Shown here: positions 41,451 to 57,018 of the stretch, piece by piece | How positions within the stretch are numbered: the stretch's first letter is position 1 | How the letters are laid out: the number at the start of each line of letters is the position of its first letter | Assembly: GCF_038024035.1 (NCBI RefSeq) | Contig: NZ_CP150664.1 | Location: forward strand, 2,294,001 to 2,358,000 | Direction: 5' to 3' | Length of the DNA stretch: 64,000 nucleotides | From: Polaribacter pacificus | GTDB taxonomy: Bacteria; Bacteroidota; Bacteroidia; Flavobacteriales; Flavobacteriaceae | Translations under genes and position numbers: made by a program | The notes under the pieces: model-generated | The model's database searches: none | Told to the model about the DNA's origin: nothing | The model's input: only the letters and a program-made list of their open reading frames with translations

Positions 41451-42290
41451 TTAATGCAAACGTCTAAAGGCAGTCGGTGTGATTCCTTTGACTTCTTTAA
41501 ACTTCCGATTAAAATTAGAAATGTTTTTAAATCCGGCTTTTTCTGAAATTTCGGCAATTAATAGTTCTTGATTTTTTAACAAACGACAGGCCTGTTCTAT
41601 CTTGACTTCGATAAGAAACTGAAAATAAGTTTTGTTGGTTCGCTGTTTAAAATAACGACAAAATGCATTGGGGGTCATGTTTGCTAGGTCTGCTATGCTT
41701 TGCAAATCAATATCACTGTCAAAATGATTCATGGTATAATCCATAATGGTACTCATTCTTTTTCCTTCATTATCCGTGTATTTTTTTTGATACACGAAAG
41801 TAGAAAGTGAAGCTGTTTCTGCTTTTAAAATAAGATTGATAATTTTTAGAAAGATGATAAATCGCTCAAAAGAACTGGCTTTTTTTAGTGATACAAATAA
41901 GGCTAATAACTCCTTTTTATGCGATAGGACCGTGCAGCCCGTATTACTTAATTTAAAAAAAGTATCAATTTTAGAAAAATCGCCCAACGAAAAAAATGCA
42001 TCACCAAATGAAGTTTTTGTAAAAAATAAGGAAATCATGTGTGATTTTTTTTCACTAGAAACATCACTTTTAAACACATGCGGTAAATTGCTGCCAATCA
42101 CTAAAACATCACCGCTTTTATAGTCGTTTACGGTATCTCCAACTACCAATGTGCCTTCTCCCTTAACAATGGCGCAAATCTGAATTTCTTCATGTTGATG
42201 CAGTTTGTCATAGAAAATAGCTCCTTTGTCTTCCTGATATATCAGAGCAATATTTTTAGATTTAGGTATTTTAAAGGGTAAAACTTTCAT
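41451..42290 (-). CDS. AraC family transcriptional regulator of the hydroxyproline cluster
   Basis: A 279-residue protein. The N-terminal cupin-like sensor (about 1-110) has IYQEDKGAIFYDKLHQHEEI and GDVLVIGSNLPHVFKSD. The C-terminal AraC domain has two helix-turn-helix motifs, IADLANMTPNAFCRYFKQRT and AEISEKAGFKNISNFNRKF. The start at 42290 is chosen because the -7 box (42344-42337) puts the RNA start near 42330, downstream of the earlier in-frame ATG at 42335. It is divergent from the first catabolic gene, so it is probably an activator responding to a hydroxyproline-derived ligand. This role is inferred from position. Confidence 0.85.
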   Translation of the reverse strand: MKVLPFKIPKSKNIALIYQEDKGAIFYDKLHQHEEIQICAIVKGEGTLVVGDTVNDYKSGDVLVIGSNLPHVFKSDVSSEKKSHMISLFFTKTSFGDAFFSLGDFSKIDTFFKLSNTGCTVLSHKKELLALFVSLKKASSFERFIIFLKIINLILKAETASLSTFVYQKKYTDNEGKRMSTIMDYTMNHFDSDIDLQSIADLANMTPNAFCRYFKQRTNKTYFQFLIEVKIEQACRLLKNQELLIAEISEKAGFKNISNFNRKFKEVKGITPTAFRRLH

Positions 42291-42336
42291 TGCTATAAAA
42301 CTTGTTTCAGCATCCAATTCTAATGTACATTTCATA

Positions 42337-42344
42337 CAAATATA
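42337..42344 (-). promoter_or_regulatory. -7 box of the araC-type gene
   Basis: The minus strand reads TATATTTG, an exact TAnnTTTG match, giving a leader of about 40 bases to the ATG at 42290. This decides the start. Confidence 0.55.
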
Positions 42345-42443
42345 TGCTAAAATACTCGTTATAATTCTTCTTTAAGTGAAAAATGAGTTAATAAAGTATC
42401 AAGACTAGATAGAATTTAGGATGGGAAAAACTTAAATCTCGTT

Positions 42444-42451
42444 TAAATTTG
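42444..42451 (+). promoter_or_regulatory. -7 box of the hydroxyproline catabolic operon
   Basis: TAAATTTG matches TAnnTTTG just 17 bases before the first ATG. The -33 position is poor, as expected of a promoter needing an activator such as the divergent AraC protein. Confidence 0.45.
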
Positions 42452-42468
42452 TAAAAAAAACATTTATA

Positions 42469-43425
42469 ATGAGTATACAATGGAATGGCGTAATGCCAGC
42501 CGTGTTTACATGGTTAAAAGAGTCAAAATCAGGTGCTCTTGAAATTGACCTTGATGCAACACAAAAACAGGCAGTAGGTATTTTAAAAACTCAAGGAAAG
42601 GGCGGAAGCAGAATGAGCGGACTTGTCGGCTCTGGAACTCTGGGTGAAAATAGCTACCTGAGCACCAAGCAGCGTCTTTCCTTACTTAGATCCCTTTCTG
42701 AGGTTGCTAAAGAATACAATGTCCCGTTGATTAGCGGAGCAGCTGCAGAAAGTAAGGAAGAACTTGCCAAAATTGTTGAAGGGCTTGCAACAGTTGGAGT
42801 TGATACAGTCATGGTCATGCCACCCAAAACTAAGGCGGTTCCTTCTGAAAAAGAAATGTATGAGTATTATGCACTTGCTGAAGCAACTGCAAAAGATGTA
42901 GGCCTAACAATTATGCCTTATAACAATCCTGATGCAGCCGGTTATCATGCACTCTCAACCGACCTTCTTTTAAGACTTTCAGTTCTTCCTAAGGTAACTG
43001 CTCTTAAAATATCGACTATAGATGTCTCAATTATTGAAACGCTGATGTTAGAGAACAAAGATTTAAAAATTTTGGCAGGAGTAGACACAGTCACTGTATA
43101 TGCAGGACTCGCTGGAGCAAGCGGTGGAGTTACAGGTGTAGGTACTATCTTTCCAAAAGCAAGTGTTACTATGCAGGAGTATGTTTTAAATGGAGAATGG
43201 GCTGAGGCAAACAAAATTTCTCAGGCTTTAAATTCCTTATCGTATCTGGATGCTCAGCCGCTGCTTATGGAATATCTTAAACTTGCTATGGGAATTCATC
43301 ATAATGATGTTGCTGGAGGGCTGCGTACCTTTGGTAAGAAATTAACCCAACAGCAAATTGATGATGTCCGTGCAAGATATATTTTGGCAAAAGAAAGACT
43401 TGAAGTTCTGGACTTAATAGGTTAA
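42469..43425 (+). CDS. DapA-family lyase, likely pyrroline-4-hydroxy-2-carboxylate deaminase
   Basis: A 318-residue TIM-barrel protein of the dihydrodipicolinate synthase family. The Schiff-base Lys is Lys180 (VTALKISTID), the Tyr is in MPYNNP (151), and the phosphate-like loop is GSGTLGE (54-60). In the hydroxyproline pathway such an enzyme removes ammonia from delta1-pyrroline-4-hydroxy-2-carboxylate to give 2-oxoglutarate semialdehyde. The neighbouring genes support this over lysine biosynthesis. Counted by eye, 28 of 42 Leu codons are CTN, against roughly a quarter in the next gene, where TTA/TTG dominate. This suggests a different origin. It is first in the operon. Confidence 0.82.
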   Translation: MSIQWNGVMPAVFTWLKESKSGALEIDLDATQKQAVGILKTQGKGGSRMSGLVGSGTLGENSYLSTKQRLSLLRSLSEVAKEYNVPLISGAAAESKEELAKIVEGLATVGVDTVMVMPPKTKAVPSEKEMYEYYALAEATAKDVGLTIMPYNNPDAAGYHALSTDLLLRLSVLPKVTALKISTIDVSIIETLMLENKDLKILAGVDTVTVYAGLAGASGGVTGVGTIFPKASVTMQEYVLNGEWAEANKISQALNSLSYLDAQPLLMEYLKLAMGIHHNDVAGGLRTFGKKLTQQQIDDVRARYILAKERLEVLDLIG

Positions 43426-43499
43426 GTTTTTCAAGACTTAAAAATACTAGCTTACAAACCAGTAAATTTGAAAAAAAAACATTTAAAAAATAAGTAAGG

Positions 43500-45083
43500 A
43501 TGATTACAGGAAAAAATTATATCGGAAATCAACTTTCTGCAAACGGAAATAAAACATATACAACATTCAATCCGCAAACCAATCAAGAAAACAAAGTTGT
43601 TTTTACAGAAGCAACTTCAGAAGAAATAGACCAAGCCGTTCTTTTAGCAACAGAGGCTTTTGCAAGTTTTAGAAACACTTCTAAAGAGCAAAAAGCAGCC
43701 TTTTTAAATGCCATTGCAGATGAGATTTTAGCTTTGGGAGATGAGCTGTTAGAAACCTATTGTTCAGAATCTGGATTGCCTCAAGGAAGAGCCATGGGAG
43801 AACGAGGAAGAACCATGGGGCAGTTGCGTAGTTTTGCTGAGTTGGTTTTAGAAGGTTCTTGGGTAGAAGCTAGCATAGACACAGCTCAACCAGACAGAGC
43901 TCCAATGCCAAAACCCGACGTTCGAAAAATGAATATTCCATTAGGACCTGTCGTTGTTTTTGGAGCCAGTAATTTTCCGTTGGCATACTCTACCGCAGGA
44001 GGAGATACAGCAGCAGCTTTAGCAGCTGGTTGTCCGGTATTGGTCAAATCACATCCAATGCATGCAGGTACTGGAGAGTTAATTTCCTCGGCTATTATCA
44101 AAGCAGCAAAAGACACAGGAATGCCAAATGGTGTTTTTTCAAATCTTAACAGTAGTGGTATCGAAGTCGGACAGCAATTGGTCAATCATCCAAAGGTAAA
44201 AGCTGTAGGTTTTACAGGAAGCATTAGAGGAGGTAGAGCCTTGTATGATTTGGCTGCCAAAAGACCAGAGCCTATCCCTGTTTTTGCAGAAATGGGAAGT
44301 GTAAACCCTGTTGTTGTACTGCCAAAAGCTTTAGAAAATAGAGCTGCAGCTTTAGCAAAAACCTATGCACAATCGATTACTTTAGGTACAGGGCAATTTT
44401 GTACTAATCCAGGCTTAATTTTAGGAATCAAAGGAGCTGCACTCACAGAATTTATAAATGTATTAGCATCTGAGATTGTGACCATAGATCCTGGATGTAT
44501 GTTGCATCCTAATATTTTGGGAGCTTATGAAGCAAACAAAGAAAAAGCTATTTCGCAAGAAGGTTTAACACTTGCTGCTCATTACCAAAATGATGTGGCA
44601 ACCAATTTTGCAAAACAAGCAATTGCCACTGTTAATGGAGCCACTTTTTTAGCCAATCCACAATTACATCAAGAAGTTTTTGGACCCTATTCTATTGTGG
44701 TACAATGCGATGATGCAAATCAGCTAGAAGAACTTATTTTGCAACTAGAAGGACAATTAACCGGAACGGTAATCGCAGACGATAATGAAACTGCAAACTA
44801 TCCAGGTGTTATTGCAGCAGTTCAAAACAGAGTAGGACGAATTATTTTTAATGGCGTTCCGACAGGTGTAGAGGTTTGTCCATCAATGGTACACGGAGGA
44901 CCTTACCCTGCATCAACAGATTCTAGATTTACTGCAGTAGGTGTTAGTTCTATTGCTCGATGGGTTCGACCATTTAGCTATCAAGATTGGCCAAATAAAT
45001 TATTACCTTTAGAATTGAAAAATGAAAACCCATTGGGTATTTTACGCTTGGTCAATAATCAGAAAACAACCGATAAAATTTAA
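43500..45083 (+). CDS. 2-oxoglutarate semialdehyde dehydrogenase (NADP+)
   Basis: A 527-residue aldehyde dehydrogenase. Catalytic Cys301 lies in GTGQFCTNPG and Glu264 in FAEMGSVNP; the nucleotide-binding GFTGS is at 237-241. It is the size of the NADP-dependent ketoglutarate-semialdehyde dehydrogenase subgroup. Its role here would be the last step, from 2-oxoglutarate semialdehyde to 2-oxoglutarate, which enters the TCA cycle. The next gene starts 4 bases after its stop, so they are co-transcribed. A fatty or aromatic aldehyde substrate is less likely in this context. Confidence 0.88.
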   Translation: MITGKNYIGNQLSANGNKTYTTFNPQTNQENKVVFTEATSEEIDQAVLLATEAFASFRNTSKEQKAAFLNAIADEILALGDELLETYCSESGLPQGRAMGERGRTMGQLRSFAELVLEGSWVEASIDTAQPDRAPMPKPDVRKMNIPLGPVVVFGASNFPLAYSTAGGDTAAALAAGCPVLVKSHPMHAGTGELISSAIIKAAKDTGMPNGVFSNLNSSGIEVGQQLVNHPKVKAVGFTGSIRGGRALYDLAAKRPEPIPVFAEMGSVNPVVVLPKALENRAAALAKTYAQSITLGTGQFCTNPGLILGIKGAALTEFINVLASEIVTIDPGCMLHPNILGAYEANKEKAISQEGLTLAAHYQNDVATNFAKQAIATVNGATFLANPQLHQEVFGPYSIVVQCDDANQLEELILQLEGQLTGTVIADDNETANYPGVIAAVQNRVGRIIFNGVPTGVEVCPSMVHGGPYPASTDSRFTAVGVSSIARWVRPFSYQDWPNKLLPLELKNENPLGILRLVNNQKTTDKI

Positions 45084-45087
45084 AAAG

Positions 45088-46809
45088 ATGAAAAATAAAA
45101 TCTTAGGAATGCTCATTTTAATATTGAGCATTTTTGCATGTAAAAAAGAATCTTCAAAAGATTTATTAACACAGGCGATTAAAGAATACGAAACCGAGCG
45201 GACCTATGATTTTAAAAGAAGTGAATCAGTAGAAAATACCATAGCGTATTATCAAAAGGAATCTGATTTTGCTGTGCAATTGTTGGAGAAACTTTCAAAA
45301 ATTGACGCTGCTGGTTTGTCTAAAACTGATCAAATTTCTTTAGAGTTGTTAGCCTTTACCTTACAAGATAAGGTAGATACACACACCTATAAAATGTATC
45401 TAAATCCTATTACTAATGAGTCGGCTTTCCATTTAAATTTGAGCAATATGGCAAATAGGAATTTTAAAGACAAAAAGCAGGCGCTGTCTTATCTAAAGCA
45501 ACTGTCTGATTTGCCAAAACGAATTGATTATAATCTAAATTTGTTAAGTGCAGGTGTTAAAGAAGGGATTTCTCAGCCAAAAGCAGTGTTTTACAACTAT
45601 GAAAACACCTACGATAAGCATATTGTTTCTGATGTTACTCAAAGTGAATTTTACAAGCCTTTTATAAATTTGCCAAAGACTTTTTCTGAAAGCTTAAAGG
45701 ACTCTTTAGTTGTAGAAGCAAAGAAGAGTGTGCAAAGCAATGCCATAGATCAATACAAAAAAATTAAGGCATTTTTTGAGGAAGAATATTTTCCGAATAC
45801 CAGAAAAGGATTAGGAGTAAGTACAATTCCAAATGGTAAAGAATTTTATCAAAACAGAATTGATTTTTATACTACTAGCAAGGAGTATACTGCAGAGGAT
45901 ATTCATCAGATTGGCTTAAAAGAAGTGGCTAGAATTAAGGCAGAGATGCAGCAAATTATCACTGATTTAGGCTTTAAAGGGAGCTTTTCAGATTTTTTAA
46001 AATTCTTAAGAACAGATAAACAGTTTTATGCAAAAACGCCTAAAGAGCTGTTGATGTATGCACGTGATATTGCAAAAAGAATTGATGCAGAATTGCCGAA
46101 GTTTTTTAAAACCCTCCCAAGAAAACCTTATGGAGTTGTTCCTGTGCCAGCAGCCATTGCACCTAATTATACAAGTGGGCGCTATTCAGGATCTAGAGGT
46201 GAGACAACTGCCGGTTTTTATTGGGTAAACACCTATAATTTACCTAGTAGAACCTTATATACCATTCCTGCATTAACTGCGCATGAAGCTGTCCCTGGAC
46301 ATCACTTGCAAATTTCATTAAACAATGAGTTGCCAGACACATTTCCTAGATTTAGAAGAGGTTTATATCTTTCTGCTTTTGGAGAAGGTTGGGGATTGTA
46401 CTCAGAATATCTAGCAGATGAAATGAATATTTATACCACTCCCTATGAAAAGTTTGGTCAGCTAACTTATGAAATGTGGAGAGCCTGTAGACTAGTTGTA
46501 GATACAGGAGTACATGCAAAAGGTTGGACCCGTCAGCAAATGATTGATTATATGGCTGCCAATACGGCTTTGTCTATGCATGAAGTAACCACAGAAACAG
46601 ACCGATACATCTCTTGGCCAGGACAAGCCTTATCGTATAAGATGGGTGAGATTAAGATTCGAGAAATGCGCAAAAAAGCTGAAGCTGCTTTGGGTGAGAA
46701 ATTTAATATTAGAGACTTTCACGAAGTAATTTTAGGAGAAGGAACCGTTACCTTATCCATCATAGAGAAACGAGTAAATAGTTATATAGAGCAGATAAAA
46801 AATGAGTAA
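45088..46809 (+). CDS. DUF885 lipoprotein (metallopeptidase-like)
   Basis: A 573-residue protein. The start at 45088 is preferred over an in-frame ATG at 45022, since it gives a lipoprotein signal (ILSIFAC, Cys at about 18), and the earlier one overlaps the preceding gene. The metal-binding segment TAHEAVPGHHLQISL (HExxxGH, about 403-417) and the Glu in FGEGWGLYSEYLADE (about 437-451) are typical of the DUF885 family, which resembles zinc peptidases. It should sit in the periplasm or on a membrane. In this operon it may process proline/hydroxyproline peptides, by inference from position. Confidence 0.82.
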   Translation: MKNKILGMLILILSIFACKKESSKDLLTQAIKEYETERTYDFKRSESVENTIAYYQKESDFAVQLLEKLSKIDAAGLSKTDQISLELLAFTLQDKVDTHTYKMYLNPITNESAFHLNLSNMANRNFKDKKQALSYLKQLSDLPKRIDYNLNLLSAGVKEGISQPKAVFYNYENTYDKHIVSDVTQSEFYKPFINLPKTFSESLKDSLVVEAKKSVQSNAIDQYKKIKAFFEEEYFPNTRKGLGVSTIPNGKEFYQNRIDFYTTSKEYTAEDIHQIGLKEVARIKAEMQQIITDLGFKGSFSDFLKFLRTDKQFYAKTPKELLMYARDIAKRIDAELPKFFKTLPRKPYGVVPVPAAIAPNYTSGRYSGSRGETTAGFYWVNTYNLPSRTLYTIPALTAHEAVPGHHLQISLNNELPDTFPRFRRGLYLSAFGEGWGLYSEYLADEMNIYTTPYEKFGQLTYEMWRACRLVVDTGVHAKGWTRQQMIDYMAANTALSMHEVTTETDRYISWPGQALSYKMGEIKIREMRKKAEAALGEKFNIRDFHEVILGEGTVTLSIIEKRVNSYIEQIKNE

Positions 46810-47812
46810 GAAAACTTTTTTTTGTGTTGATGCACATACCTGTGGAAATCCTGTCCGAGTAGTTGCAGGAGGTGGTCCAAATTTGGTTGGGAACACCATG
46901 AGTGAAAAACGCCAACATTTTTTAAAAGACTATGATTGGATTCGCAAGGGGTTAATGTTTGAGCCCCGAGGTCACGATATGATGAGTGGTAGCATTCTGT
47001 TTCCACCCCATGATCCAGCCAATGATTTTGCAATTTTGTTTATAGAAACATCGGGTTGTTTGCCCATGTGTGGACACGGAACCATCGGAACCATTACCAT
47101 TGCAATAGAAGAGGGTTTAATTACACCAAAAGTGCCAGGAAAAATAAGAATGGAAGCTCCAGCTGGTTTAGTAGACATCGCTTATGGTCAAACAGGAAAC
47201 AAAGTTGATTGGGTTCGATTGACCAATGTCAAAAGTTATTTGGCGGCAGAAAATCTAAGTATTGATTGTCCAGAATTAGGAGAGGTTAGCTTTGATGTGG
47301 CATATGGAGGAAATTACTATGCCATAGTAGATCCTCAGAAAAACTTTTCGGGAGTCCATGATTTTACTGCGTCTAAAATTATTCAGTACTCTCAGGTAGT
47401 TAGACAAAGAATCAATGAAAAATATCCAAATCAATTTATCCATCCAGAAAATGATACCATTAGAGATGTAACCCATATGCTCTGGACAGGAAATCCAATT
47501 GACCCAACATCATCTGGGAGAAATGCTGTTTTTTATGGCGATAAAGCCATTGATAGAAGCCCTTGTGGCACAGGAACATCAGCAAGATTAGCGCAGCTAT
47601 ACGCAAAAGGAAAGTTGCAGCTAGGTGAGGCCTTTGTACATGAAAGTTTTATCGGGAGCAAATTTATCGGACGCGTAGAAGAAGCAACAAGTTTGGCAGG
47701 AAAACCAGCTATTATTCCAAGCATTGAAGGTTGGGCCAAAGTATATGGCTATAACAATATTATTATTGATGAAGAAGATGATCCGTATGCACATGGGTTT
47801 CAGGTAATTTAA
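46802..47812 (+). CDS. 4-hydroxyproline 2-epimerase (proline racemase family)
   Basis: A 336-residue cytosolic enzyme. The two catalytic Cys are Cys90 (MCGHGTIG) and Cys255 (SPCGTGTSA), the acid-base pair of this family; both present means an epimerase/racemase rather than a dehydratase, which has Thr at the second site. The reaction would turn trans-4-hydroxy-L-proline into cis-4-hydroxy-D-proline, the first pathway step. Its ATG overlaps the upstream stop by 8 bases, so it is translationally coupled. Proline racemase is the alternative, but the gene context favours hydroxyproline. Confidence 0.9.
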   Translation: MSKKTFFCVDAHTCGNPVRVVAGGGPNLVGNTMSEKRQHFLKDYDWIRKGLMFEPRGHDMMSGSILFPPHDPANDFAILFIETSGCLPMCGHGTIGTITIAIEEGLITPKVPGKIRMEAPAGLVDIAYGQTGNKVDWVRLTNVKSYLAAENLSIDCPELGEVSFDVAYGGNYYAIVDPQKNFSGVHDFTASKIIQYSQVVRQRINEKYPNQFIHPENDTIRDVTHMLWTGNPIDPTSSGRNAVFYGDKAIDRSPCGTGTSARLAQLYAKGKLQLGEAFVHESFIGSKFIGRVEEATSLAGKPAIIPSIEGWAKVYGYNNIIIDEEDDPYAHGFQVI

Positions 47813-47902
47813 CAACATAAGTGTAGTGTAAATTAGCATTAAGAATGAACGTGTTTTTGGAAATTAGACAAAAACCTATTTGGAATTTTAATTGGAACCA
47901 AA

Positions 47903-49150
47903 ATGAGTAAAAGTGTTGTAATTATCGGTGGAGGTATCATTGGATTGTGTACCGCCTACTACCTTCAAAAGGAAGGCTGTAAGGTAACCATAATTGATAA
48001 ATCTAATTTTAGTAGTGGAGCCTCTTATGTCAATGCGGGCTATATTACACCTAGTCATTTTATTCCATTGGCAGCGCCAGGAATGATTAGCAAAGGACTA
48101 AAATGGATGTTTAATTCATCGAGTCCTTTTTATGTAAAGCCACGTTTGGATTCAGATTTTTTGCAATGGTCCTGGGCCTTTAAAAAATCAGCAACAGCAG
48201 AGAAAGTAGCACAAGCCATACCTGTTATAAAAGACATTAACCTTTTTGGACGAGACTTGTATCAAGCAATGAAAACTTCTAATGAATTTGATTTTAGTTT
48301 TGATAAAAAAGGCTTGTTAATGTATTATCAATCTGATAAGGTTGGAGAAGAAGAATGGTCAATCGGTCAACAAGGAATTAAAGAAGGTCTACAAGTTGAG
48401 TTGCTAAGCAAGGCTCAAGTAGAAACACTACAACCCAATCTAAACCTAGATATTAAAGGCGCTGTGTATTTTCATTCAGATGCCCATATGACTCCAACAG
48501 AATTTATGCCACAGCTCTTGGCGAATCTCAAGTCTAAAGGAGTGCAGATTTTTGAAAATGAAGAGGTTAAAGACTTAGAGATAGATGCTAAGGGCATTCG
48601 CAAAGTAATCACAAATAAAAGAACGCTAACAGCTGATGAATACGTTTTGGCAGCTGGTAGTTGGAGCCCTTTACTCACAAAAAAACTGGGTTTAAAAATC
48701 CCGATTCAAGCGGGTAAAGGCTACGCAATTAATGTAAAAAGAGAAACGAATATCAATATTCCTGCGATTTTAGCGGAGGCAAAAGTAGCAGTAACTCCTA
48801 TGAATGGATTTACCCGTTTTGCTGGGACCATGGAAATTGGTGGAATCAACCACAATATAAATCCAGCTCGCGTTGCTGCTATTGCCGCTGCAGCAGCTCG
48901 CTATTATCCAGATATTAATATTACTACCCAAGAAAAGGCAGCAGCAGTTTGTGGTTTGAGACCCTGTTCACCAGATGGGATTCCATATATCGGAAAATCA
49001 TCCAAGGCCAACAATCTAACCATTGCAACAGGACATGCAATGATGGGCTGGAGCTTAGGGCCCGCAACAGGTAAAATGGTTTCAGAGATTATTACAGGAC
49101 AAAAGAGTTCTTTAAACCTAGCTCCGTTTCATCCAGATAGAAAATTTTAA
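47903..49150 (+). CDS. FAD-dependent D-hydroxyproline dehydrogenase (DadA-like)
   Basis: A 415-residue flavoenzyme. The FAD-binding motif SVVIIGGGIIGLCTAYYL is at about 3-20. The C-terminal GLRPCSPDGIPYIGKS and TGHAMMGWSLGPATGKM are typical of the DadA/D-amino-acid dehydrogenase family. In this cluster it should oxidise cis-4-hydroxy-D-proline to delta1-pyrroline-4-hydroxy-2-carboxylate and feed electrons to the quinone pool. It has no transmembrane segment. It follows the epimerase by 90 bases and precedes an Xaa-Pro peptidase gene. Confidence 0.9.
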   Translation: MSKSVVIIGGGIIGLCTAYYLQKEGCKVTIIDKSNFSSGASYVNAGYITPSHFIPLAAPGMISKGLKWMFNSSSPFYVKPRLDSDFLQWSWAFKKSATAEKVAQAIPVIKDINLFGRDLYQAMKTSNEFDFSFDKKGLLMYYQSDKVGEEEWSIGQQGIKEGLQVELLSKAQVETLQPNLNLDIKGAVYFHSDAHMTPTEFMPQLLANLKSKGVQIFENEEVKDLEIDAKGIRKVITNKRTLTADEYVLAAGSWSPLLTKKLGLKIPIQAGKGYAINVKRETNINIPAILAEAKVAVTPMNGFTRFAGTMEIGGINHNINPARVAAIAAAAARYYPDINITTQEKAAAVCGLRPCSPDGIPYIGKSSKANNLTIATGHAMMGWSLGPATGKMVSEIITGQKSSLNLAPFHPDRKF

Positions 49151-49169
49151 AAAAGTAAATTCATTAAAA

Positions 49170-50384
49170 ATGATAGGAATAGGAGGATCAACTATTGATC
49201 AAGAATTAAAGGCTATAGTACCCAGTGCTCATCTTGTTGAGCCCATTAAAAAGGAAGAATATCAAGCGAGAATTCAGAAAGCTTGTGCTTTGATGAAAAC
49301 TAAAAACATTAAGGTTCTGTATTTAAATGCAGGGACCAACTTGTATTATTTTACAGGAATGAAATGGAATTCTAGTGAACGAATGGTAGGAGCGCTTTTA
49401 TTTCAAGACGGATCACTTCATTTTATAGCTCCAGAATTTGAAAAAGGCACCATCCTAGATTTTATGCTTATAGAAGGAGAGATTCATTGTTGGGAAGAGC
49501 ATGAGTCTCCATATCAACTCTGTATGGATATACTTACTTCAAAGTCATTGACAGAGGGAGTAATCGCTCTAGATGAGAGTACGCCATTTTTTATTGTTGA
49601 TGGTCTTGAGCACTGCAAAGGTCGTTTTGATTTTATCAATGCGAAAAGCATTACAGCAACCTGTAGGATGGTAAAGTCTGATGCAGAAATTGCCATCATG
49701 CAACAGGCCATGAACATTACCTTAGAGGTGCAAAAAGCAGCTGCAAGAATTTTAAGGGTCGGTATTTCTGCCAAAGAAGTAACTGATTTTATTCATCAAG
49801 CTCATATTAGATACGGAATTCCTTCGGGCTCTTATTTTTGTATCGTACTATTTGGTGTAGATTCGTCATTTCCTCATGGTGTAAAATCACCAAAAAATTT
49901 AGAAGAAAATGAAGTAGTCTTAATTGATACAGGTTGTATGCTACACCACTATATTTCTGATCTTACAAGAACCTATGTTTTTGGAGAAGCTAATGACTTA
50001 CAACGAAAAATTTGGAACATCGAAAAAGAAACCCAACAGGCAGCTTTTGATGCTGCACAGCTTGGAGGGACTTGCGCAATGGTAGATGCAGCATCTAGAC
50101 GTGTATTAGAATCACATAAGTTAGGACCTGATTACAAATTGCCAGGGCTGCCTCACAGAACAGGTCATGGAATCGGCTTAGACATTCACGAGTGGCCATA
50201 TTTGGTTAGCAGCGATCAGACTATTTTAGAAGCAGGAATGACCTTTAGTAATGAGCCAATGATTTGTGTCCCTAATGAGTTTGGAATTCGATTTGAAGAC
50301 CATATTTATATGACTAGCACAGGGCCAAAATGGTTTACTGAACCCATGAAGACCATCGAAGACCCGTTTGGGTACTCGTCTTAA
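49170..50384 (+). CDS. M24 aminopeptidase P-like cytosolic peptidase
   Basis: A 404-residue protein with no signal peptide. All five metal ligands are present: Asp in LIDTGCM, Asp in ISDLTRTY, His in RTGHGIGLD, Glu in SNEPMICV and Glu in RFEDHIYM. Aminopeptidase P-type enzymes release an N-terminal residue before Pro. Collagen-derived peptides are rich in Gly-Pro-Hyp, so a dipeptidase or Xaa-Pro/Hyp peptidase at the end of this operon fits as the supplier of free hydroxyproline. That use is inferred from the neighbours. A strong terminator follows. Confidence 0.88.
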   Translation: MIGIGGSTIDQELKAIVPSAHLVEPIKKEEYQARIQKACALMKTKNIKVLYLNAGTNLYYFTGMKWNSSERMVGALLFQDGSLHFIAPEFEKGTILDFMLIEGEIHCWEEHESPYQLCMDILTSKSLTEGVIALDESTPFFIVDGLEHCKGRFDFINAKSITATCRMVKSDAEIAIMQQAMNITLEVQKAAARILRVGISAKEVTDFIHQAHIRYGIPSGSYFCIVLFGVDSSFPHGVKSPKNLEENEVVLIDTGCMLHHYISDLTRTYVFGEANDLQRKIWNIEKETQQAAFDAAQLGGTCAMVDAASRRVLESHKLGPDYKLPGLPHRTGHGIGLDIHEWPYLVSSDQTILEAGMTFSNEPMICVPNEFGIRFEDHIYMTSTGPKWFTEPMKTIEDPFGYSS

Positions 50385-50390
50385 TTATAT

Positions 50391-50424
50391 AAAAAAACCT
50401 TAGGTGTTTGCCTAAGGTTTTTTT
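50391..50424. terminator. bidirectional terminator between convergent operons
   Basis: A perfect 14-bp stem, AAAAAAACCTTAGG and its complement, has the loop TGTTTG. It lies between the stop codons of the M24 gene and the amidohydrolase and has A and T flanks for use in both directions. Confidence 0.9.
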
Positions 50425-50432
50425 GTGTTTAC

Positions 50433-53400
50433 TTAGTTAGCGTGACAGCTACAGGTTGGTATGGTAAAACTGTTGGTGGCTGCATTCAAAGGAACCCCTT
50501 GATTGTATTTGCCATTTTCCCAATAAAACTTTGTGCGTGGCTTATTGTAATTGCCAATTTCATTCATGGTGTTAATGTCATACAAACGACCATTAACCAT
50601 AGTATAATGAACAGAGTTCGAATTTTGTATGTCTTCTAAAGGGTTTTTGTCGAGTACAATTAAATCGGCTAATTTTCCAACTTTTAAAGAGCCTAACTCA
50701 TCTCCAACACCTATGTATTCTGCACCATTAATGGTGGCAGCTTTTAGGGCTTCTAAATTGCTTAGCCCACCTTGTTGTAGCATCCACAGCTCCCAGTGAG
50801 CTCCCAAACCTTGTAATTGACCATGAGCTCCTAAATTTACTTTGACACCAAGTTTAGAAAGATCTGTTACTGTTTTAGAAGTCAAAATATGGCCATTTTC
50901 ATATTCTTCGTCCGGAATCATTGTTCTGTGACGCGATCGGGTATCAACCACATAACGAGGCGTGTACTTAAGGAGTGTTTTGTTTTCCCATACATTGCTT
51001 TTTTGATACCAGTAATATTCACCACTCATTCCTGCATAATTTACAATCAAAGTAGGCGTATAGCCAGTTGCGCTATTTTTCCAGAGCGTCAATACATCTT
51101 TATATACTGGAGCTACCGGTATGTTGTGCTCAATTCCGGTATGACCATCAAAGATCATACTCATATTTGAATAGAAGTTAGAGCCCCCTTCAGGAACGAC
51201 ATTTACACCCAGTTCTTTTGCTGCTTGCATAATTTGCTGACGTTGTTCTCTTCTTGGTTGGTTGTAACTTTTTACTGATTTTGCCCCAAAAGCTTTGGTT
51301 CTTGCAATGGCAAAGCGCGCATCGTCTAAGCTGTTAACCACTGCTTTAAAATCACCTTCGGCACCATATAAGATAAAGCCAGTAGAAAACATTCTAGGCC
51401 CAACAATTTCTCCACTACGTTGTAATTCTTCAAGTGTAAAAGCTGCCGCAGTATTTACAGAAGGGTCATGAGAGGTGGTTACTCCAAAGGCTAAGTTTGT
51501 GTAAAACTGCCAGTGTTTTTGAGTGCTTAGCCCGTTTCTAAAAGCACCTACATGGGCATGTACATCTACCATTCCTGGCATGATGGTTTTGCCCTTCATA
51601 TCATAAATTTTTGTTCCTGACGGAATCTTAACGCTTGATGATTTTCCTATTTTTTCTATCTCATTTTGATTCACAATGATGGTTCCACTTTCGATAATTT
51701 TATCGTTTTCCATAGTAATCAAACGCGCATTGGTAAAGGCGATTCTGCCTTGTGGTACATCGGTTTTAACCTCGAGTCCAACTTTTATTCCTGCTGGAGC
51801 ATTGCTAATCAAATTAGTGTTGGCAAAAGGGTTCTGCGTATTGTCAGTGATGTTTTTAGTAAAGTATTCATCACCTAAAGTCCAATGAACCTGCTTACTA
51901 TTGTTAGACCAATGCAAGTTGATTCCCGCATTTTCTGATAAGCTTTCGACTTTAAAAGAACTGCTATTGGTGTCTAAGTTAATGGTACTTCCGTTATGAA
52001 CAAAAGGAGCCACATACAATTTGTGCAAATGAATAAATGAAATCCATTTATTGTCAGGGCTAGGGACCAATCTATTTGCATGTTTAGAACTAAAATGACT
52101 TTGTCTTTTTTGACCTTCTAAATCAAAACTGACTAAGGTTTTGGTTAGTCCTCCCATAAACGAGCCACCGGTTTGAACAAAAATGCGATCTCCTTTGGCG
52201 TTAAAGATTGGAAAATCACCTCCGTCTGCAATTTTTTTAGCTTCGCTTCCATTGGCATTCATTAAATAAATTCCAGTTTTTTTAGTAAAATCATAGCCTT
52301 GATCTCCGTTTCCTCCTTCTTTTTTATAGACAATTTTTTGATTGTTAGGTGCAAATGAAGGCATTCTATAGATCCCTTTTTCTTTGGTTAATTGTTGATG
52401 ATTACTTCCGTTGATGTCAATTTTATGAACTGCACCCAAGTTTTCATCGTTCCACGTAACAAATACCACTGATTTTCCATCCGAAGAAAAACTTGGGTCT
52501 CCTTCAAAATCAGTTAGGTTGGTGATTCTTTGTGGGGTTCCGTTTGGTAAACTTTTTCTGTAGATATGTCCAAGCGAAGTAAAGATGAGTGTTTTACCAT
52601 CTGCAGAGGTCTTGGCATCTTTAATCATTTTAGAGGTAAAGCTTTTACTAAAGACCTGTCTTTTTACTTTTTGGGTCTCTGCCAGCTTAATTTTCTCATC
52701 CACTTCAAAAGGGATTTCTGTTAGCTTTTTAGTATCAATATTTAATTTGTTTATTTTTCCACCAGACCAAATAATCAAGTCTTTGTTGTTTTTAAGCCAA
52801 GTAAAATGAGGATAGACACCAAACACAGCCCAAGCTTCTTGCTGGTCTTTGTTTAGGTCAAAATACACAGGCCATTCTTCTCCAGTTTCTAAGTTGTGGA
52901 TGTATAAAACAGATTTGGTTCTTACCCGCTTAACAAAAGCGAGAAGTTTTCCATCTTTAGAAATAACGGGTCTTGCAGCACCACCTGGACCACCAGTAAT
53001 CTGTTTTATTTTACCGGTAGTAAAATCATATTGTTTAATGACATAGATCTGATTGTTAGGGTCTTTGTTGTAGTTAAAAGCGCCTCCAGGATACATGTCT
53101 TCTGCAAAATAAAGATACCTTCCGTCAGATGATATAGAAGGGTCATTGACATCTTGCTGGTCGTTCTTTCTACTTGTCAACTTAAGGCCTGCAGCTCCAG
53201 ATAATGGGTATTGCCACATTTCTCCAGCACCTACAGAACGAGTAGAGGTATAGTGTTTTCTCGCTACTACTGATTTTCCGTCTGGAGTCCAAACGGCATT
53301 GTTAAGCAGTCTAAATTTTTCTTTGGTTAAAGATTTTGCATTTTTACCATCGGCAGTCATAATCCAGATATTGTTACCGCCTTCTGCATCACTGGTAAAT

Positions 53401-53717
53401 GAAATATACTGACCATTTGGACTAAAACGCGGTTGCACTTCATAGGCCAAACCAGTTCTTAAAGGAGTTGCTTTTCCACCTGTGATAGGCATGGTGTAGA
53501 TGTCTCCTAATAAATCAAAAACGATGGTTTTTTCATCCGGGCTTACATCTAAGTTCATCCAAGTACCTTCTGAGGTTTTTAAACGAAAAGATTTGTATTT
53601 CCAGTCTTTATAAGGGTTGTTTACATCCCACTTTTCTGGTTTTTCAGCTGTTTTCTTTTGAGCAAAAGAACTAAAAGAAATTAAAATTGCAAAGATCAAT
53701 GATAAAATAGTACGCAT
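50433..53717 (-). CDS. exported TolB-propeller / amidohydrolase fusion
   Basis: A 1094-residue protein with a signal peptide (about 1-19, ending SFAQ). The N-terminal two-thirds is a WD40/TolB-like beta-propeller with repeats such as PSFSSDGKSVVFVT. The C-terminal third (about 665-1080) is an amidohydrolase with metal motif MPGMVDVHAHVGAF (HxH) and later AHGQLQGLGAH and LADLIVLD segments. It ends PTCSCHAN. A role in cleaving amide or peptide substrates in the periplasm fits, and such fusions are known in Bacteroidota. It is convergent with the hydroxyproline operon and 51 bases downstream of the big fusion gene, so the two may share a transcript. Confidence 0.88.
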   Translation of the reverse strand: MRTILSLIFAILISFSSFAQKKTAEKPEKWDVNNPYKDWKYKSFRLKTSEGTWMNLDVSPDEKTIVFDLLGDIYTMPITGGKATPLRTGLAYEVQPRFSPNGQYISFTSDAEGGNNIWIMTADGKNAKSLTKEKFRLLNNAVWTPDGKSVVARKHYTSTRSVGAGEMWQYPLSGAAGLKLTSRKNDQQDVNDPSISSDGRYLYFAEDMYPGGAFNYNKDPNNQIYVIKQYDFTTGKIKQITGGPGGAARPVISKDGKLLAFVKRVRTKSVLYIHNLETGEEWPVYFDLNKDQQEAWAVFGVYPHFTWLKNNKDLIIWSGGKINKLNIDTKKLTEIPFEVDEKIKLAETQKVKRQVFSKSFTSKMIKDAKTSADGKTLIFTSLGHIYRKSLPNGTPQRITNLTDFEGDPSFSSDGKSVVFVTWNDENLGAVHKIDINGSNHQQLTKEKGIYRMPSFAPNNQKIVYKKEGGNGDQGYDFTKKTGIYLMNANGSEAKKIADGGDFPIFNAKGDRIFVQTGGSFMGGLTKTLVSFDLEGQKRQSHFSSKHANRLVPSPDNKWISFIHLHKLYVAPFVHNGSTINLDTNSSSFKVESLSENAGINLHWSNNSKQVHWTLGDEYFTKNITDNTQNPFANTNLISNAPAGIKVGLEVKTDVPQGRIAFTNARLITMENDKIIESGTIIVNQNEIEKIGKSSSVKIPSGTKIYDMKGKTIMPGMVDVHAHVGAFRNGLSTQKHWQFYTNLAFGVTTSHDPSVNTAAAFTLEELQRSGEIVGPRMFSTGFILYGAEGDFKAVVNSLDDARFAIARTKAFGAKSVKSYNQPRREQRQQIMQAAKELGVNVVPEGGSNFYSNMSMIFDGHTGIEHNIPVAPVYKDVLTLWKNSATGYTPTLIVNYAGMSGEYYWYQKSNVWENKTLLKYTPRYVVDTRSRHRTMIPDEEYENGHILTSKTVTDLSKLGVKVNLGAHGQLQGLGAHWELWMLQQGGLSNLEALKAATINGAEYIGVGDELGSLKVGKLADLIVLDKNPLEDIQNSNSVHYTMVNGRLYDINTMNEIGNYNKPRTKFYWENGKYNQGVPLNAATNSFTIPTCSCHAN

Positions 53718-53768
53718 GATGCTATGATTTAATGGTTGATTGATAATTTTTAGGTGTATAAATATAAG

Positions 53769-56700
53769 CTATTTAAATGAGAGCTTTAAAGGGTCTTCAG
53801 CAAGTATGTCCTCTAGACAAGCTATGAGTTCTTCGGCGTTTTGTTGTGAAAAAACCAATGGAGGTTTAATTTTTAAGACATTGTTATCTGGTCCATCAGA
53901 GCTCATTAGAATGCCGTGGTCTTTCATTCGGTTAATAAGATAAGCTGTTTGCTCACTTAGCGGACGCAGCTTTGCATCCACCAATTCAATGCCTAAAAAT
54001 AAACCTTCACCTCTGATATCTCCTATAATAGGGAATCGCAATGCTAGTTTTCTGAGTTCAGATTTTAAGAACTCCCCAACAGTAAAAGCATTTTCTTGAA
54101 GCTTTTCTCGACTAACCGTTTGTAATACTTCGGTGGCAATGGCACAAGAAACAGGATTTCCTCCAAACGTATTAAAGTACTCCATGCCGTTGGCAAACTT
54201 TTCTGCAATTTCGGCTGTACAAGCAACTGCGGCAATAGGATGCCCATTGCCAAGCGGCTTCCCAATGGTAACAATATCTGGACATACTTGATGAAGTTGG
54301 AATCCCCAAAACGTTTTCCCCATTCGACCACAACCTGTTTGTACTTCATCAGAAATACAAACACCTCCTGCTGCTCTGGTTTTTTGATAGGCAATTTCTA
54401 AAAATCCTTGAGGGAGCTCAATTTGCCCACCACAACTAATAATTGGTTCTAAGATAAGTGCCGCAACGCCTCTCCCTTTTTTGGAGATTCTATCGATACA
54501 GTTTTGAACTTCTTGGGCATAGGCGGTAGCTGTATTTTTACCTTTGTATGTCCCTCTAAAAGAATCAGGAAGTGGAAATATATGGGTGTGCTCTGGTGCT
54601 CCTGATCCTCCTTTGCCGTCAAATTTGTATGAGCTAATGTCTATACAGGCATTGGTATTGCCATGGTAGCCATACTCACTGGCTATGATATCTCTTTGTC
54701 CTGTTGCAGCTTTTGCCATTCTCAGTGCCAACTCATTGGCTTCACTGCCAGAATTAACAAAGTGTAAAACACTTAATTCTTTAGGTAAGGTTTTTAGCAG
54801 TTCTTTTGCAAGTGTGTTTATGTTTTTGTGTAAATAGCGCGTATTGGTATTAATCAAGGCCATTTGCTCTTGCCCTGCTTTTACAACGGCGTAATGCTCA
54901 TGCCCTACATGGGCTACATTATTTACGGTGTCAAGGTATTTTTTTCCGTTTTGATCCATTAAATACTGACCAGAACCACGGACCATTTTAAGAGGTATTT
55001 TGTATTGTAAACTTAAGCTTTTCCCGAGGTGTTCAGTCCTAAACTCTATGAGTTTGTCATTAGTGCTATTAGATTCTTTTACCGATTCTTTGGTTTTAAA
55101 AAGCAGGGATGGATCAGGGCAAATACTCTCCCAAACAGCTTTTTGTTCATAAAAAGCAACTCCAGGAAAATCATCTTTAAAATCCAATAAAGACAGCATC
55201 AACTGAAAATGAAGGTGTGGGGCCCAAGATCCATTTTCTTCGGGAGTACCCAAATACCCGATGGCATCGCCTTTCTTTAATTTTTCAGTAAGTGATTGAT
55301 TGTCAATGCTTTCTTTGGATAAATGCCCATAAAGCGAATAAAAGTCAAAGCTGTCTGTTTGATGCTTTAGGATGATAAGTCCTCCGTAATTTTTAAAACC
55401 TTTACAATAGGTAGCAACCACAATTTCTCCATCGAGGATTGCATGAATTGCTGTGCTCTTAGGAAGCCAATAGTCAACACCCAAATGGATGGTTCTGCTC
55501 ATTCTACCATTATTGCCAATAGCATCAAAATCAGTAGAGGTATATAAAGGTCTTGGCTCAAGATAGCCTCCAGCAAGGATGGATTTAGGCTGTGTTTTTT
55601 GTAGTTTTTGTAGTTTGTAGGCAAATAAATCCAAGTCATTAAAATCTTGCTGATGCCCGATCCATGAACTAGCCACGCTTAAGTCTAGCGGATAGGTGCT
55701 GCTCTTTTGAATGCTTGGAAACAAATCAGTCAATGAAAAATGAATAGATGCTGCCCAGTCTTTAAAAGCATTTTCGTTGGGATGTGAAGCAAATCCACAG
55801 GCAGCTCGAAAGCAATAATGCGCAAAATCTTTATGGGTGCTTCTCCATTTTTTTAACAGCTCCCAAGCGGGTTTTTCACTAATTAAAAGATACTCGTTGT
55901 CTGGGTTTTTTATTTTGTTGATGGCAGATTTGCACACCGAAATCACCAATCTCATGCCAATTAAGTTGTAGAGGAATTCCAATTCTTTTTCTAGAAGCGG
56001 TAAGCTCTTGTGATACCCTGCTACTATCGGGAGTGCTGCTGTTAAAGGATCTTTATGATTCATGATTGCATAGGCACAGCTAACGGCAACATCATTGATA
56101 ACCTGGCTATAGACCGCATCACCATAATCAATAAGTGCGACTACTTTTGGGGCAAATAAATCATCAGAGACCAAAATGTTATTGTCATTGGCATCGTTGT
56201 GAATGACAGATTTTGGCAAGAGGTTATAGGTTTTTTGATGAGCTTCAAAATCAGATAAAAAAAAGGTGACTAGGTCTTTTTCTTTGGGAGTAAAGGCAGC
56301 TAAATGTTCTTTTACCCATAGAGCCTGTGCAAGATCCCAATCAAATATTCTGTTGGCTTTTGGGTGTTCAAAGCCCTTTAATGATTTTGTTAATTGACCA
56401 CATAGTTGCCCAAGACCAAAACGCAGCTCGTCTAACTGAGGGTTTGCCTCAGACCAAAGTCTACCGGGAATCCATGTTAAAAGACGCAAGTATCTTTGTG
56501 TTCCATCACTATGAACAAAGGATGTAATTGCCTGCCCTTTTACATCTAAAATAATCTTAGGAATGCAGATTTCTGGATTGGCATCCCTAGCATATTGCAA
56601 TAGTTTTTGTTGAAAATCAAGGTTATCAAGTGCTTCATTTTCATGAGAAATTTTTAAAATATATGAGTTGTTTTCAGTAGTCACTATTTTAAAATTATGA

Positions 56701-56804
56701 TCAACTTCTCCTGGGAGTTTGCTAGCAGACCCTATACTGTTGTAGTGTTCTAACAAGAGTTTTTCTGCTAGTTCTATGGTTATTTTTTTAGAAGACGAAT
56801 TCAT
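53769..56804 (-). CDS. APH kinase - M23 peptidase - class III PLP phospholyase fusion
   Basis: A 1011-residue three-domain protein. Residues about 10-340 are an APH-type kinase, with the catalytic loop [13 protein letters not shown] (HNDANDNN at 202-209) and LIDYGD. Residues about 430-570 hold an M23/lysostaphin-like domain with His440, Asp444, His494 and the HxH at 530-532. Residues about 595-1010 form a class III PLP enzyme: [12 protein letters not shown], Asp819 in ISDEVQTG and Lys849 in TIGKPLG. The NNVAHVGH...RYLH pattern resembles human PHYKPL and ETNPPL, and the kinase resembles hydroxylysine kinase. There is no signal peptide. The start at 56804 is a choice: ATGs at 56810 and 56834 are also in frame, but the last lies inside a palindrome. 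A hydroxylysine or phosphoethanolamine role is inferred. Confidence 0.82.
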
Positions 56805-56824
56805 ATCCATTGTTGCGATTAGTT

Positions 56825-56854
56825 TTTTATACATCTGTCAACTGATGTATAAAA
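56825..56854. promoter_or_regulatory. 11-bp inverted repeat over the fusion gene's 5' region
   Basis: TTTTATACATC (56825-56835) and its complement GATGTATAAAA (56844-56854) flank an 8-base centre. The ATG at 56834 lies inside the left arm. It could be an operator or a leader hairpin for the kinase-phospholyase gene. Confidence 0.5.
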
Positions 56855-56914
56855 TAAACGCTTTAAAAATACTTAAATCTTTGAGTATAATTAGGGTCTA
56901 ATTTGCTTTTCGTT

Positions 56915-56931
56915 AAGATTAGCCTAATCTT
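56915..56931. promoter_or_regulatory. 17-bp palindrome between the fusion gene and ade
   Basis: AAGATTAGCCTAATCTT is a perfect 8-1-8 inverted repeat in the gap between the divergent fusion gene and adenine deaminase. It is a likely binding site for a dimeric regulator; neither the regulator nor the target gene is known. Confidence 0.45.
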
Positions 56932-57018
56932 GGTTAGTATTGTATTAGCAATGCAAGTAACCTTGCGAATAGAGTCCGTAGAATTCTTTGTAATTTTACA
57001 GTTCCTAAATAGAAACTT

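What the first reader, a model, noticed from the sequence alone, without database searches (positions are those of the whole stretch)
42469..56804. Hydroxyproline pathway beside a kinase-M23-phospholyase fusion: a possible collagen amino-acid catabolic island
The four enzymes for trans-4-hydroxy-L-proline to 2-oxoglutarate are all in one direction (epimerase with both catalytic Cys, DadA-like dehydrogenase, DapA-family lyase, semialdehyde dehydrogenase), with two peptidases between. The nearby convergent protein joins an APH-type kinase and a class III PLP domain whose NNVAHVGH...RYLH pattern matches human hydroxylysine- and ethanolamine-phosphate phospholyases. Hydroxyproline and hydroxylysine occur together mainly in collagen, so the layout suggests breakdown of both. 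The hydroxylysine part is inference.
Basis: partly seen in the sequence, partly recalled or inferred. Interest (0 to 1): 0.8.

Follow-up and report, generated by a model that had tools for sequence, protein, structure and literature searches.

The report
Collagen hydroxy-amino-acid catabolic island in bacteria
A marine bacterium carries, side by side, genes to eat hydroxyproline and a three-part enzyme that very probably eats hydroxylysine, and in sister species the same locus also holds enzymes that would strip collagen's sugars, so this looks like a genetic kit for using collagen's modified amino acids.

Summary
In detail: 42469-50384 is a six-gene 4-hydroxyproline operon with a divergent AraC regulator, and 53769-56834(-) is a convergent 1021-aa APH kinase / M23 / class III PLP fusion (NCBIfam PRK06148). 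In a sister species (G306) the same locus also holds P2C reductase, trans-3-hydroxyproline dehydratase, a YgjK-type GH63 and a GH2 beta-galactosidase; other relatives add SusC/D, mutarotase, galactokinase and GalT. A PDB entry has YgjK with Glc-alpha1,2-Gal, collagen's hydroxylysine-linked disaccharide. In the genus, 23 of 24 GH63-bearing genomes carry the fusion, 21 of 24 within 3.4 kb. Two loci add L-piperidine-6-carboxylate dehydrogenase, the enzyme for the expected lyase product. Best reading: the fusion phosphorylates and deaminates 5-hydroxylysine (M23 role speculative) within an island for 3-Hyp, 4-Hyp and Glc-Gal-Hyl; the window holds a reduced version without GH63. The fusion and its tie to hydroxylysine kinase were used in 2012 (recalled); ten searches listed nothing on the glycosidase link. 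No enzyme was assayed.

The parts
41451..42335 (-). AraC-family regulator, divergent from the Hyp operon
   Evidence: Pfam HTH_18, AraC_binding; a homologue (33-69% identical) stands in 17 of 20 Hyp loci L151-L170
42469..43425 (+). DapA-family lyase, presumed delta1-pyrroline-4-hydroxy-2-carboxylate deaminase; a same-genus substitute for the usual 301-330-aa type
   Evidence: Pfam DHDPS; 32% identical to L072's DapA, the type found in 20 of 20 other Hyp loci; 88-94% orthologues in the same operon position in 5 same-genus genomes
43500..45083 (+). Aldehyde dehydrogenase, presumed 2-oxoglutarate semialdehyde dehydrogenase
   Evidence: Pfam Aldedh; best NCBIfam match 2,5-dioxovalerate dehydrogenase, far below cut-off
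45022..46809 (+). DUF885 putative lipoprotein metallopeptidase (real start probably near 45088)
   Evidence: Pfam PF05960, 521 bits; HEAVPGHH and a lipobox-like start read from the sequence
46802..47812 (+). 4-hydroxyproline 2-epimerase
   Evidence: NF010578 587.6 bits over cut-off 376; both Cys motifs
47903..49150 (+). FAD-dependent D-amino-acid dehydrogenase, presumed cis-4-hydroxy-D-proline dehydrogenase
   Evidence: Pfam DAO; NF001933 266.2 bits, below cut-off 383
49170..50384 (+). M24 Xaa-Pro-type peptidase
   Evidence: Pfam Peptidase_M24 and Creatinase_N
50433..53717 (-). TolB-propeller/amidohydrolase protein with a signal-like start; possible Xaa-Pro dipeptidase
   Evidence: PD40 and Amidohydro_1; NF051886 Xaa-Pro dipeptidase 100.6 bits, below cut-off 500; within the stretch of 21 of 55 same-genus fusion loci
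53769..56834 (-). APH kinase (residues 40-263), M23 peptidase (449-546), class III PLP phospholyase (612-1011): presumed 5-hydroxylysine kinase/phospholyase with a peptidase domain
   Evidence: Pfam; NF004799 PRK06148 1128.5 bits, cut-off 1128; 6tor and 5g4i best phospholyase relatives; H450, D454, H504, H540, H542 kept in 86 of 86 M23-bearing rows
57019..58641 (+). Adenine deaminase: flanking marker of the orthologous locus, not part of the pathway
   Evidence: TIGR01178 632.8 bits over cut-off 472.5; in 28 of 55 same-genus fusion stretches

Best explanation
The region is the core of a catabolic island for collagen's modified amino acids. The operon takes trans-4-hydroxy-L-proline by epimerase, FAD dehydrogenase, deaminase and semialdehyde dehydrogenase to 2-oxoglutarate. 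The convergent fusion phosphorylates the 5-hydroxyl of hydroxylysine (APH domain), and its PLP domain eliminates ammonia and phosphate to give 2-aminoadipate 6-semialdehyde / piperidine-6-carboxylate, which a P6C dehydrogenase encoded elsewhere in the genome oxidises. In fuller relatives a GH63 removes glucose and a GH2 or GH42 removes galactose from Glc-alpha1,2-Gal-O-Hyl outside the cytoplasm, mutarotase, galactokinase and GalT take the galactose, and trans-3-hydroxyproline is handled by a dehydratase and P2C reductase. The window has the fusion and the 4-Hyp branch only. Shown: gene content, family membership, conserved catalytic residues, recurrent linkage. Inferred: every substrate. Speculative: the M23 domain frees Hyl from short Hyl-Gly type peptides.
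For: Sister species G306 reads P2C reductase - t3Hyp dehydratase - GH63 - FUSION - TolB/amidohydrolase - GH2 - two small genes - M24-like - DAO - epimerase - DUF885 - ALDH - DapA - AraC at the same place beside adenine deaminase. L235 (G412) has both hydroxyproline branches, mutarotase, GH63, two GH2 and the fusion in one 20-kb stretch. L213: SusC-SusD / GntR - mutarotase - GH63 - FUSION - GH2 - SSF - GalK - small gene - GalT. L065: P2C reductase NF004793 379>322, t3Hyp dehydratase-like, GH63, GH2, SSF, galactokinase TIGR00131 326>227. P6C dehydrogenase NF050084 in the L030 cluster (826>730), 1 kb from the fusion in L107, another phylum (780>730), and in the own genome (819>730). GH63: 24 of 166 genus genomes, 23 of them fusion-bearing (59 of 166 have the fusion), 21 of 24 within 3.4 kb; 6 of 296 in the order, 5 fusion-bearing and all 5 within 3 kb. 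PDB 3w7w is YgjK E727A with 2-O-alpha-D-glucopyranosyl-alpha-D-galactopyranose (title); the Asp and Glu of YgjK align (the Asp in a short low-scoring piece). Collagen glycan: PMC11012932, PMC8626586 (passages). On the tree GH63 linkage needs at least 6 changes and 4Hyp linkage at least 7.
Against: No enzyme was shown here to act on hydroxylysine; the closest solved relatives act on phosphoethanolamine by name, and sequence cannot separate the two. 19 of 55 same-genus fusion stretches carry none of GH63, beta-galactosidase, 4Hyp epimerase or t3Hyp dehydratase. Outside Bacteroidota only L107 and L128 of the named loci show a marker; three Roseobacter loci whose upstream gene was scanned gave a glutamine-synthetase-like gene, ferrochelatase and a hydroxyisobutyrate-dehydrogenase-like gene. 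P6C dehydrogenase also serves lysine breakdown (recalled), so its presence in the own genome is not specific. The window genome lacks GH63 at the cut-offs used, and no M9 collagenase was found, by an uninformative search. P values ignore shared ancestry.
Confidence: 0.85

Rival explanations
1. The fusion is an ethanolamine kinase plus phosphoethanolamine phospho-lyase that salvages nitrogen and acetaldehyde from membrane lipids; its place next to Hyp genes is incidental.
Against: Recurrent linkage to 4Hyp, 3Hyp, GH63 and beta-galactosidase genes and P6C dehydrogenase in two phyla, none of which ethanolamine needs.
Confidence: 0.1
2. The GH63/GH2/GalK loci degrade an unrelated Glc-alpha1,2-Gal glycan (algal or bacterial), and the fusion salvages a different amino-alcohol of that glycan.
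For: SusC/SusD and Leloir genes show a carbohydrate-utilisation locus; I know of no established natural substrate for YgjK-type GH63 (recalled).
Against: t3Hyp dehydratase, P2C reductase and 4Hyp operons recur in the same loci; collagen explains all of them together.
Confidence: 0.07
3. The window's fusion is a relic that no longer serves Hyl, since partner genes are missing there.
For: The window genome lacks GH63; in G310 the same locus keeps the Hyp operon but only a 237-aa fusion remnant.
Against: The window copy is full length with kinase Asp, zinc ligands and PLP lysine present, and P6C dehydrogenase is in the genome.
Confidence: 0.06

Closest known systems
Vertebrate hydroxylysine degradation: HYKK (AGPHD1) kinase plus PHYKPL (AGXT2L2) phospholyase, and ETNPPL (AGXT2L1) (Veiga-da-Cunha et al. 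2012, recalled; paper not held)
   Same: Same two chemical steps and homologous domains; that work, as I recall it, already used bacterial bi- and trifunctional fusions to infer the functions.
   Different: In bacteria the two enzymes are one chain, mostly with an M23 domain between, and genomically tied to hydroxyproline and collagen-glycan genes.
Bacterial trans-4-hydroxy-L-proline pathway (epimerase, D-Hyp dehydrogenase, deaminase, 2-oxoglutarate semialdehyde dehydrogenase; recalled)
   Same: All four enzyme types in one direction with an AraC regulator, as in the order's other Hyp loci.
   Different: The window's DapA gene is only 32% identical to the usual one; peptidases DUF885 and M24 are included.
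E. coli YgjK (GH63)
   Same: Closest solved relative by sequence of the GH63 beside the fusion (252 bits); PDB 3w7w holds Glc-alpha1,2-Gal.
   Different: YgjK is not known to me to be tied to hydroxylysine use; the flavobacterial copies have signal- or lipoprotein-like starts (by eye). None was found in the window genome.
Animal PGGHG (GH65), which removes glucose from Glc-alpha1,2-Gal-Hyl of collagen, and its bacterial kin FjGH65A, an alpha-1,2-glucosidase acting on kojibiose (PMC8626586, PMC11012932; passages)
   Same: Same proposed reaction for the GH63.
   Different: Different glycoside hydrolase family (GH65 against GH63).
NCBIfam PRK06148 (NF004799), unnamed subfamily of these fusions
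   Same: The window protein scores 1128.5, cut-off 1128.
   Different: The model is named hypothetical protein; it assigns no function.

Membership tests
4-hydroxyproline epimerase (PRK13971) | Score over curated cut-off and two catalytic Cys | tested here: met
   587.6 against 376 bits; Cys in the MCGHG and SPCGTG motifs
4-hydroxyproline degradation operon | Epimerase, DAO-type dehydrogenase, DapA-type deaminase and ALDH together | tested here: met
   the DapA is a non-orthologous substitute
PRK06148 kinase-M23-PLP fusion | Full-length match over curated cut-off | tested here: met
   1128.5 against 1128 over residues 10-1013
Hydroxylysine kinase (HYKK-like) | APH fold with catalytic Asp residues | tested here: met
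   PF01636 80 bits, cut-off 23.2; D214 and D236 in 91 of 91 rows with a letter
Hydroxylysine kinase (HYKK-like) | Phosphorylates 5-hydroxy-L-lysine | not testable with these tools
   needs an assay
5-phosphohydroxylysine phospholyase (PHYKPL) against ETNPPL | Phospholyase-type class III PLP domain with the PLP lysine | tested here: met
   6tor and 5g4i the top two sequence relatives; K859 in 91 of 91 rows with a letter
5-phosphohydroxylysine phospholyase (PHYKPL) against ETNPPL | Prefers 5-phosphohydroxylysine over phosphoethanolamine | tested here: inconclusive
   sequence alone does not separate them; gene context favours Hyl
M23 metallopeptidase | HxxxD and HxH zinc ligands | tested here: met
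   86 of 86 M23-bearing rows; nearest solved kin LytM, zoocin A, lysostaphin
SusC/SusD carbohydrate-utilisation locus | SusC/SusD pair beside glycosidases and the fusion | tested here: not met
   met in relatives L029 and L213; not among the window's genes from 41451 to 58641
Collagenolytic organism | M9 collagenase in the genome | tested here: inconclusive
   no match in the own genome; 2 of 296 in the order weakly, none over the cut-off; control genomes silent both times

The most novel reading that the evidence does not exclude
Bacteroidota carry an undescribed utilisation system for collagen's whole set of post-translational marks: 3-hydroxyproline, 4-hydroxyproline and Glc-alpha1,2-Gal-O-hydroxylysine, in which YgjK-type GH63 is the bacterial collagen-glycan glucosidase and the PRK06148 fusion is a trifunctional Hyl-peptide hydrolase, hydroxylysine kinase and phosphohydroxylysine lyase, the cytoplasmic M23 domain cutting Hyl-Gly peptides.
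Probability: 0.5. Interest if true: 0.85.

Novelty: new variant of a known kind. Interest (0 to 1): 0.76.

Why it matters
Collagen is a major animal protein, and I know of no assigned bacterial gene set for its hydroxylysine or the sugar bound to it. The island gives candidate genes for the whole route, a proposed natural substrate for YgjK-type GH63, a function for a widespread 'hypothetical' fusion, and a genomic marker for bacteria that live on animal matrix. Each step can be assayed with purified enzymes.

Tried and rejected
Ethanolamine reading: kept as a rival, lowered by P6C dehydrogenase, 3Hyp and glycosidase linkage. Chance adjacency of fusion and Hyp operon: rejected, since the linkage recurs in several lineages (FastTree, 23 of 89 inner branches drawn open). 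Collagenase search (PF01752): nothing in the own genome, but the 14 control genomes gave nothing either, and in the order 2 of 296 gave weak matches below the cut-off, so it says little. Substrate by sequence alone: not possible; no PHYKPL was among the 60 PDB sequences listed (of 199), and the best 120 listed in searches with the PLP part and with the kinase part were mainly partial copies of the same fusions. Members outside Bacteroidota: neighbours scanned gave no further hydroxylysine sign apart from L107 and L128; two had aldehyde-oxidising neighbours (L101 AFOR, L134 ALDH nearest to benzaldehyde dehydrogenase), which fits an aldehyde product but is not specific. The GH63 model is weak (mean pLDDT 62.7, 5 sequences); I rely on the sequence match and the PDB titles. 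The fusion model has low confidence in parts of the PLP domain. Literature: ten searches, seen as listings of up to 20 rows, listed no paper on bacterial hydroxylysine kinase/phospholyase genes or on bacterial use of Glc-Gal-Hyl; some searches were loosely worded and tell little, and most subscription journals are not held. Passages were seen of PMC11012932, PMC8537180, PMC8626586 and PMC7263609; no paper was read whole. Two named loci (L116, L136) dropped out of the counts because my gene finder did not return the fusion there.
Full report
OBSERVATION. The window holds a + strand run of six genes, 42469-50384: DapA-family lyase, aldehyde dehydrogenase, DUF885 protein, 4-hydroxyproline epimerase, DAO-type dehydrogenase and M24 peptidase, with a divergent AraC regulator at 41451-42335. 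The epimerase passes the curated model by a wide margin (587.6 against 376 bits) and keeps both Cys; the other three enzymes match only broad families, and their exact reactions are inferred from the cluster. On the minus strand follow a TolB-propeller/amidohydrolase protein (50433-53717) and the 1021-aa APH / M23 / class III PLP fusion (53769-56834), a member of NCBIfam PRK06148, named 'hypothetical protein'. That protein matches an Xaa-Pro dipeptidase model weakly (100.6 bits, cut-off 500).

THE HYDROXYPROLINE BRANCH. I read 20 stretches around epimerase genes of other genomes of the order. All 20 have an ALDH and a 301-330-aa DapA of one type; 18 show DAO in the stretch; an AraC homologue is in 17. 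Of the two without DAO, L151 is cut and continues in L022 with epimerase and DAO, and L168 has none. The window's own DapA (318 aa) is 32% identical to that DapA type, and the genome has no closer copy. Five same-genus genomes have an 88-94% orthologue in the same operon position. So this is a standard 4-hydroxyproline operon in which the deaminase has been replaced by another DapA-family member within the genus (inference).

CO-OCCURRENCE. In 296 genomes of the order, 14 have a fusion homologue (8 with three domains, 6 kinase-PLP); 12 of those 14 have the epimerase, against 37 of 296 in all. The GH63 is in 6 of 296, 5 of them fusion-bearing, and in each of these five the two genes are less than 3 kb apart. 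A trans-3-hydroxyproline dehydratase homologue is in 5 of 296, 4 of them fusion-bearing. In the window's genus 59 of 166 genomes have the fusion and 24 of 166 the GH63; 23 of these 24 are fusion-bearing, and in 21 of 24 the GH63 is within 3.4 kb of the fusion. Of the other three, one is 12.8 kb away, one is a 41% relative about 466 kb away, and one is in a genome without the fusion. Hypergeometric values are 1.9e-10 (epimerase), 6.4e-7 (GH63, order), 1.6e-5 (dehydratase) and 2.9e-11 (GH63, genus); they ignore shared ancestry.

NEIGHBOURHOODS. I read 55 of the 59 same-genus fusion loci as stretches of up to 20 kb (the others are G000, G030, G256 and G306); 47 of 55 have at least 7 kb on both sides. 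Of the 55, 20 carry GH63, 17 a beta-galactosidase over 40% identical to the references, 19 the 4Hyp epimerase, 14 the t3Hyp dehydratase, 9 galactokinase; 36 carry at least one of the first four and 19 none. Among 91 loci of the wider sets (78 named, 13 unnamed), 11 carry GH63, 12 a GH2 or GH42, 8 the 4Hyp epimerase, 4 the t3Hyp dehydratase and 2 P6C dehydrogenase. By my count of those rows 24 of 91 carry at least one. All but L107 and L128 of these 24 are records labelled Bacteroidota or same-family genomes, counting L069 (titled Algicola, placed by that name in Pseudomonadota, but grouping with Flavobacteriaceae on the tree). On the tree GH63 linkage needs at least 6 changes and 4Hyp linkage at least 7 (FastTree, several weak forks). 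The second proline-racemase-family gene beside the fusion (L065, L068, L079, L089) has Cys/Thr where the epimerase has Cys/Cys (alignment; that this marks trans-3-hydroxyproline dehydratase is recalled); L065's copy scores best against that family, 370 bits, below the cut-off of 540.

THE FULL LOCUS IN RELATIVES. In G306, same genus, the orthologous place beside adenine deaminase reads P2C reductase - t3Hyp dehydratase - GH63 - fusion - TolB/amidohydrolase - GH2 - two small genes - M24-like gene (26% identical to the window's) - DAO - epimerase - DUF885 - ALDH - DapA - AraC. The window has the same order minus P2C reductase, dehydratase, GH63 and GH2. L235 (G412) joins both hydroxyproline branches (P2C reductase cut by the stretch's end), mutarotase, GH63, two GH2 and the fusion. 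L213 reads SusC - SusD divergent from GntR - mutarotase - GH63 - fusion - GH2 - SSF symporter - galactokinase - small gene - GalT. L029-L032 pair the M23-less form with GH63 and GH42, L029 also with SusC/SusD and L030 with P6C dehydrogenase upstream of the GH63 (826 against 730 bits). L107, from another phylum, has P6C dehydrogenase 1 kb from the fusion on the other strand (780 against 730).

HOW IT MOST LIKELY WORKS. Collagen hydroxylysine carries Gal or Glc-alpha1,2-Gal (PMC11012932 and PMC8626586, passages seen). The linked GH63 is closest to E. coli YgjK; YgjK's Asp501 and Glu727 align with an Asp and a Glu of L065's GH63 (the Asp in a short low-scoring piece; Asp501 named as general acid in PMC7263609, passage; Glu727 is the mutated residue in PDB titles). 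YgjK has been crystallised with 2-O-alpha-glucosyl-galactose (3w7w title). Glucosidase, then beta-galactosidase, then kinase and phospholyase, then P6C dehydrogenase is therefore a coherent route from Glc-Gal-Hyl to 2-aminoadipate. Mutarotase, GalK and GalT take the galactose, and the hydroxyproline genes take the other two marks of collagen. The kinase/phospholyase chemistry on hydroxylysine is that of vertebrate HYKK and PHYKPL (recalled; the 2012 paper is not held). The M23 step is my speculation: hydroxylysine in collagen is followed by glycine (recalled), and the nearest M23 enzymes cut next to glycine. That M23-less forms sit in GH63 loci too (L029-L032) shows the domain is not needed everywhere.

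WHAT THE WINDOW ORGANISM CAN DO. It has the 4Hyp branch, the fusion and P6C dehydrogenase (819 against 730 bits at genome position 1708916; that enzyme also serves lysine breakdown, recalled), but no GH63 at the cut-offs used; beta-galactosidase was not searched. It could use free or peptide-bound hydroxylysine but perhaps not glycosylated forms. The genus is probably Tenacibaculum: contigs of two same-genus genomes (G351:C1, 2791743 bases; G321:C11, 328738 bases) have the lengths of contigs named Tenacibaculum pacificus and T. aiptasiae; this is inference.

VERDICT. The fusion itself is known and its link to hydroxylysine was proposed before (recalled). The tie to collagen-glycan glycosidases, Leloir genes, SusC/D and both hydroxyproline pathways did not appear in the listings of ten searches of a partial library. 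Substrates remain unproven.

Noticed in passing
42469-43425: The operon's DapA gene is a non-orthologous substitute (32% identical) for the DapA type found in 20 of 20 other Hyp loci of the order; some same-genus genomes share it.
   Followed up: yes
50433-53717: TolB-propeller plus amidohydrolase protein, within the stretch of 21 of 55 same-genus fusion loci; possible Xaa-Pro dipeptidase for Pro/Hyp peptides.
   Followed up: partly
L029-L034: Shorter kinase-PLP proteins (747-768 aa) without the M23 domain; four of six beside GH63 and GH42.
   Followed up: partly
L030 10953-13901; L093 7764-10703: A D-2-hydroxyglutarate-dehydrogenase-like FAD/Fe-S protein directly follows the fusion or kinase-PLP gene; it could act on a later 2-hydroxy acid of the route. 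Unexplained.
   Followed up: no
L125 7861-10004: In a Sulfitobacter the fusion is preceded by an overlapping glutamine-synthetase-like gene (nearest model gamma-glutamylputrescine synthetase, below cut-off), hinting at a different amine substrate in Roseobacters.
   Followed up: partly
L181 11268: In same-genus genome G310 the same locus keeps the Hyp operon, amidohydrolase and adenine deaminase but only a 237-aa remnant of the fusion.
   Followed up: no
L114: A full-length fusion in a metagenome-assembled record labelled Thorarchaeota archaeon: transfer or contamination.
   Followed up: no
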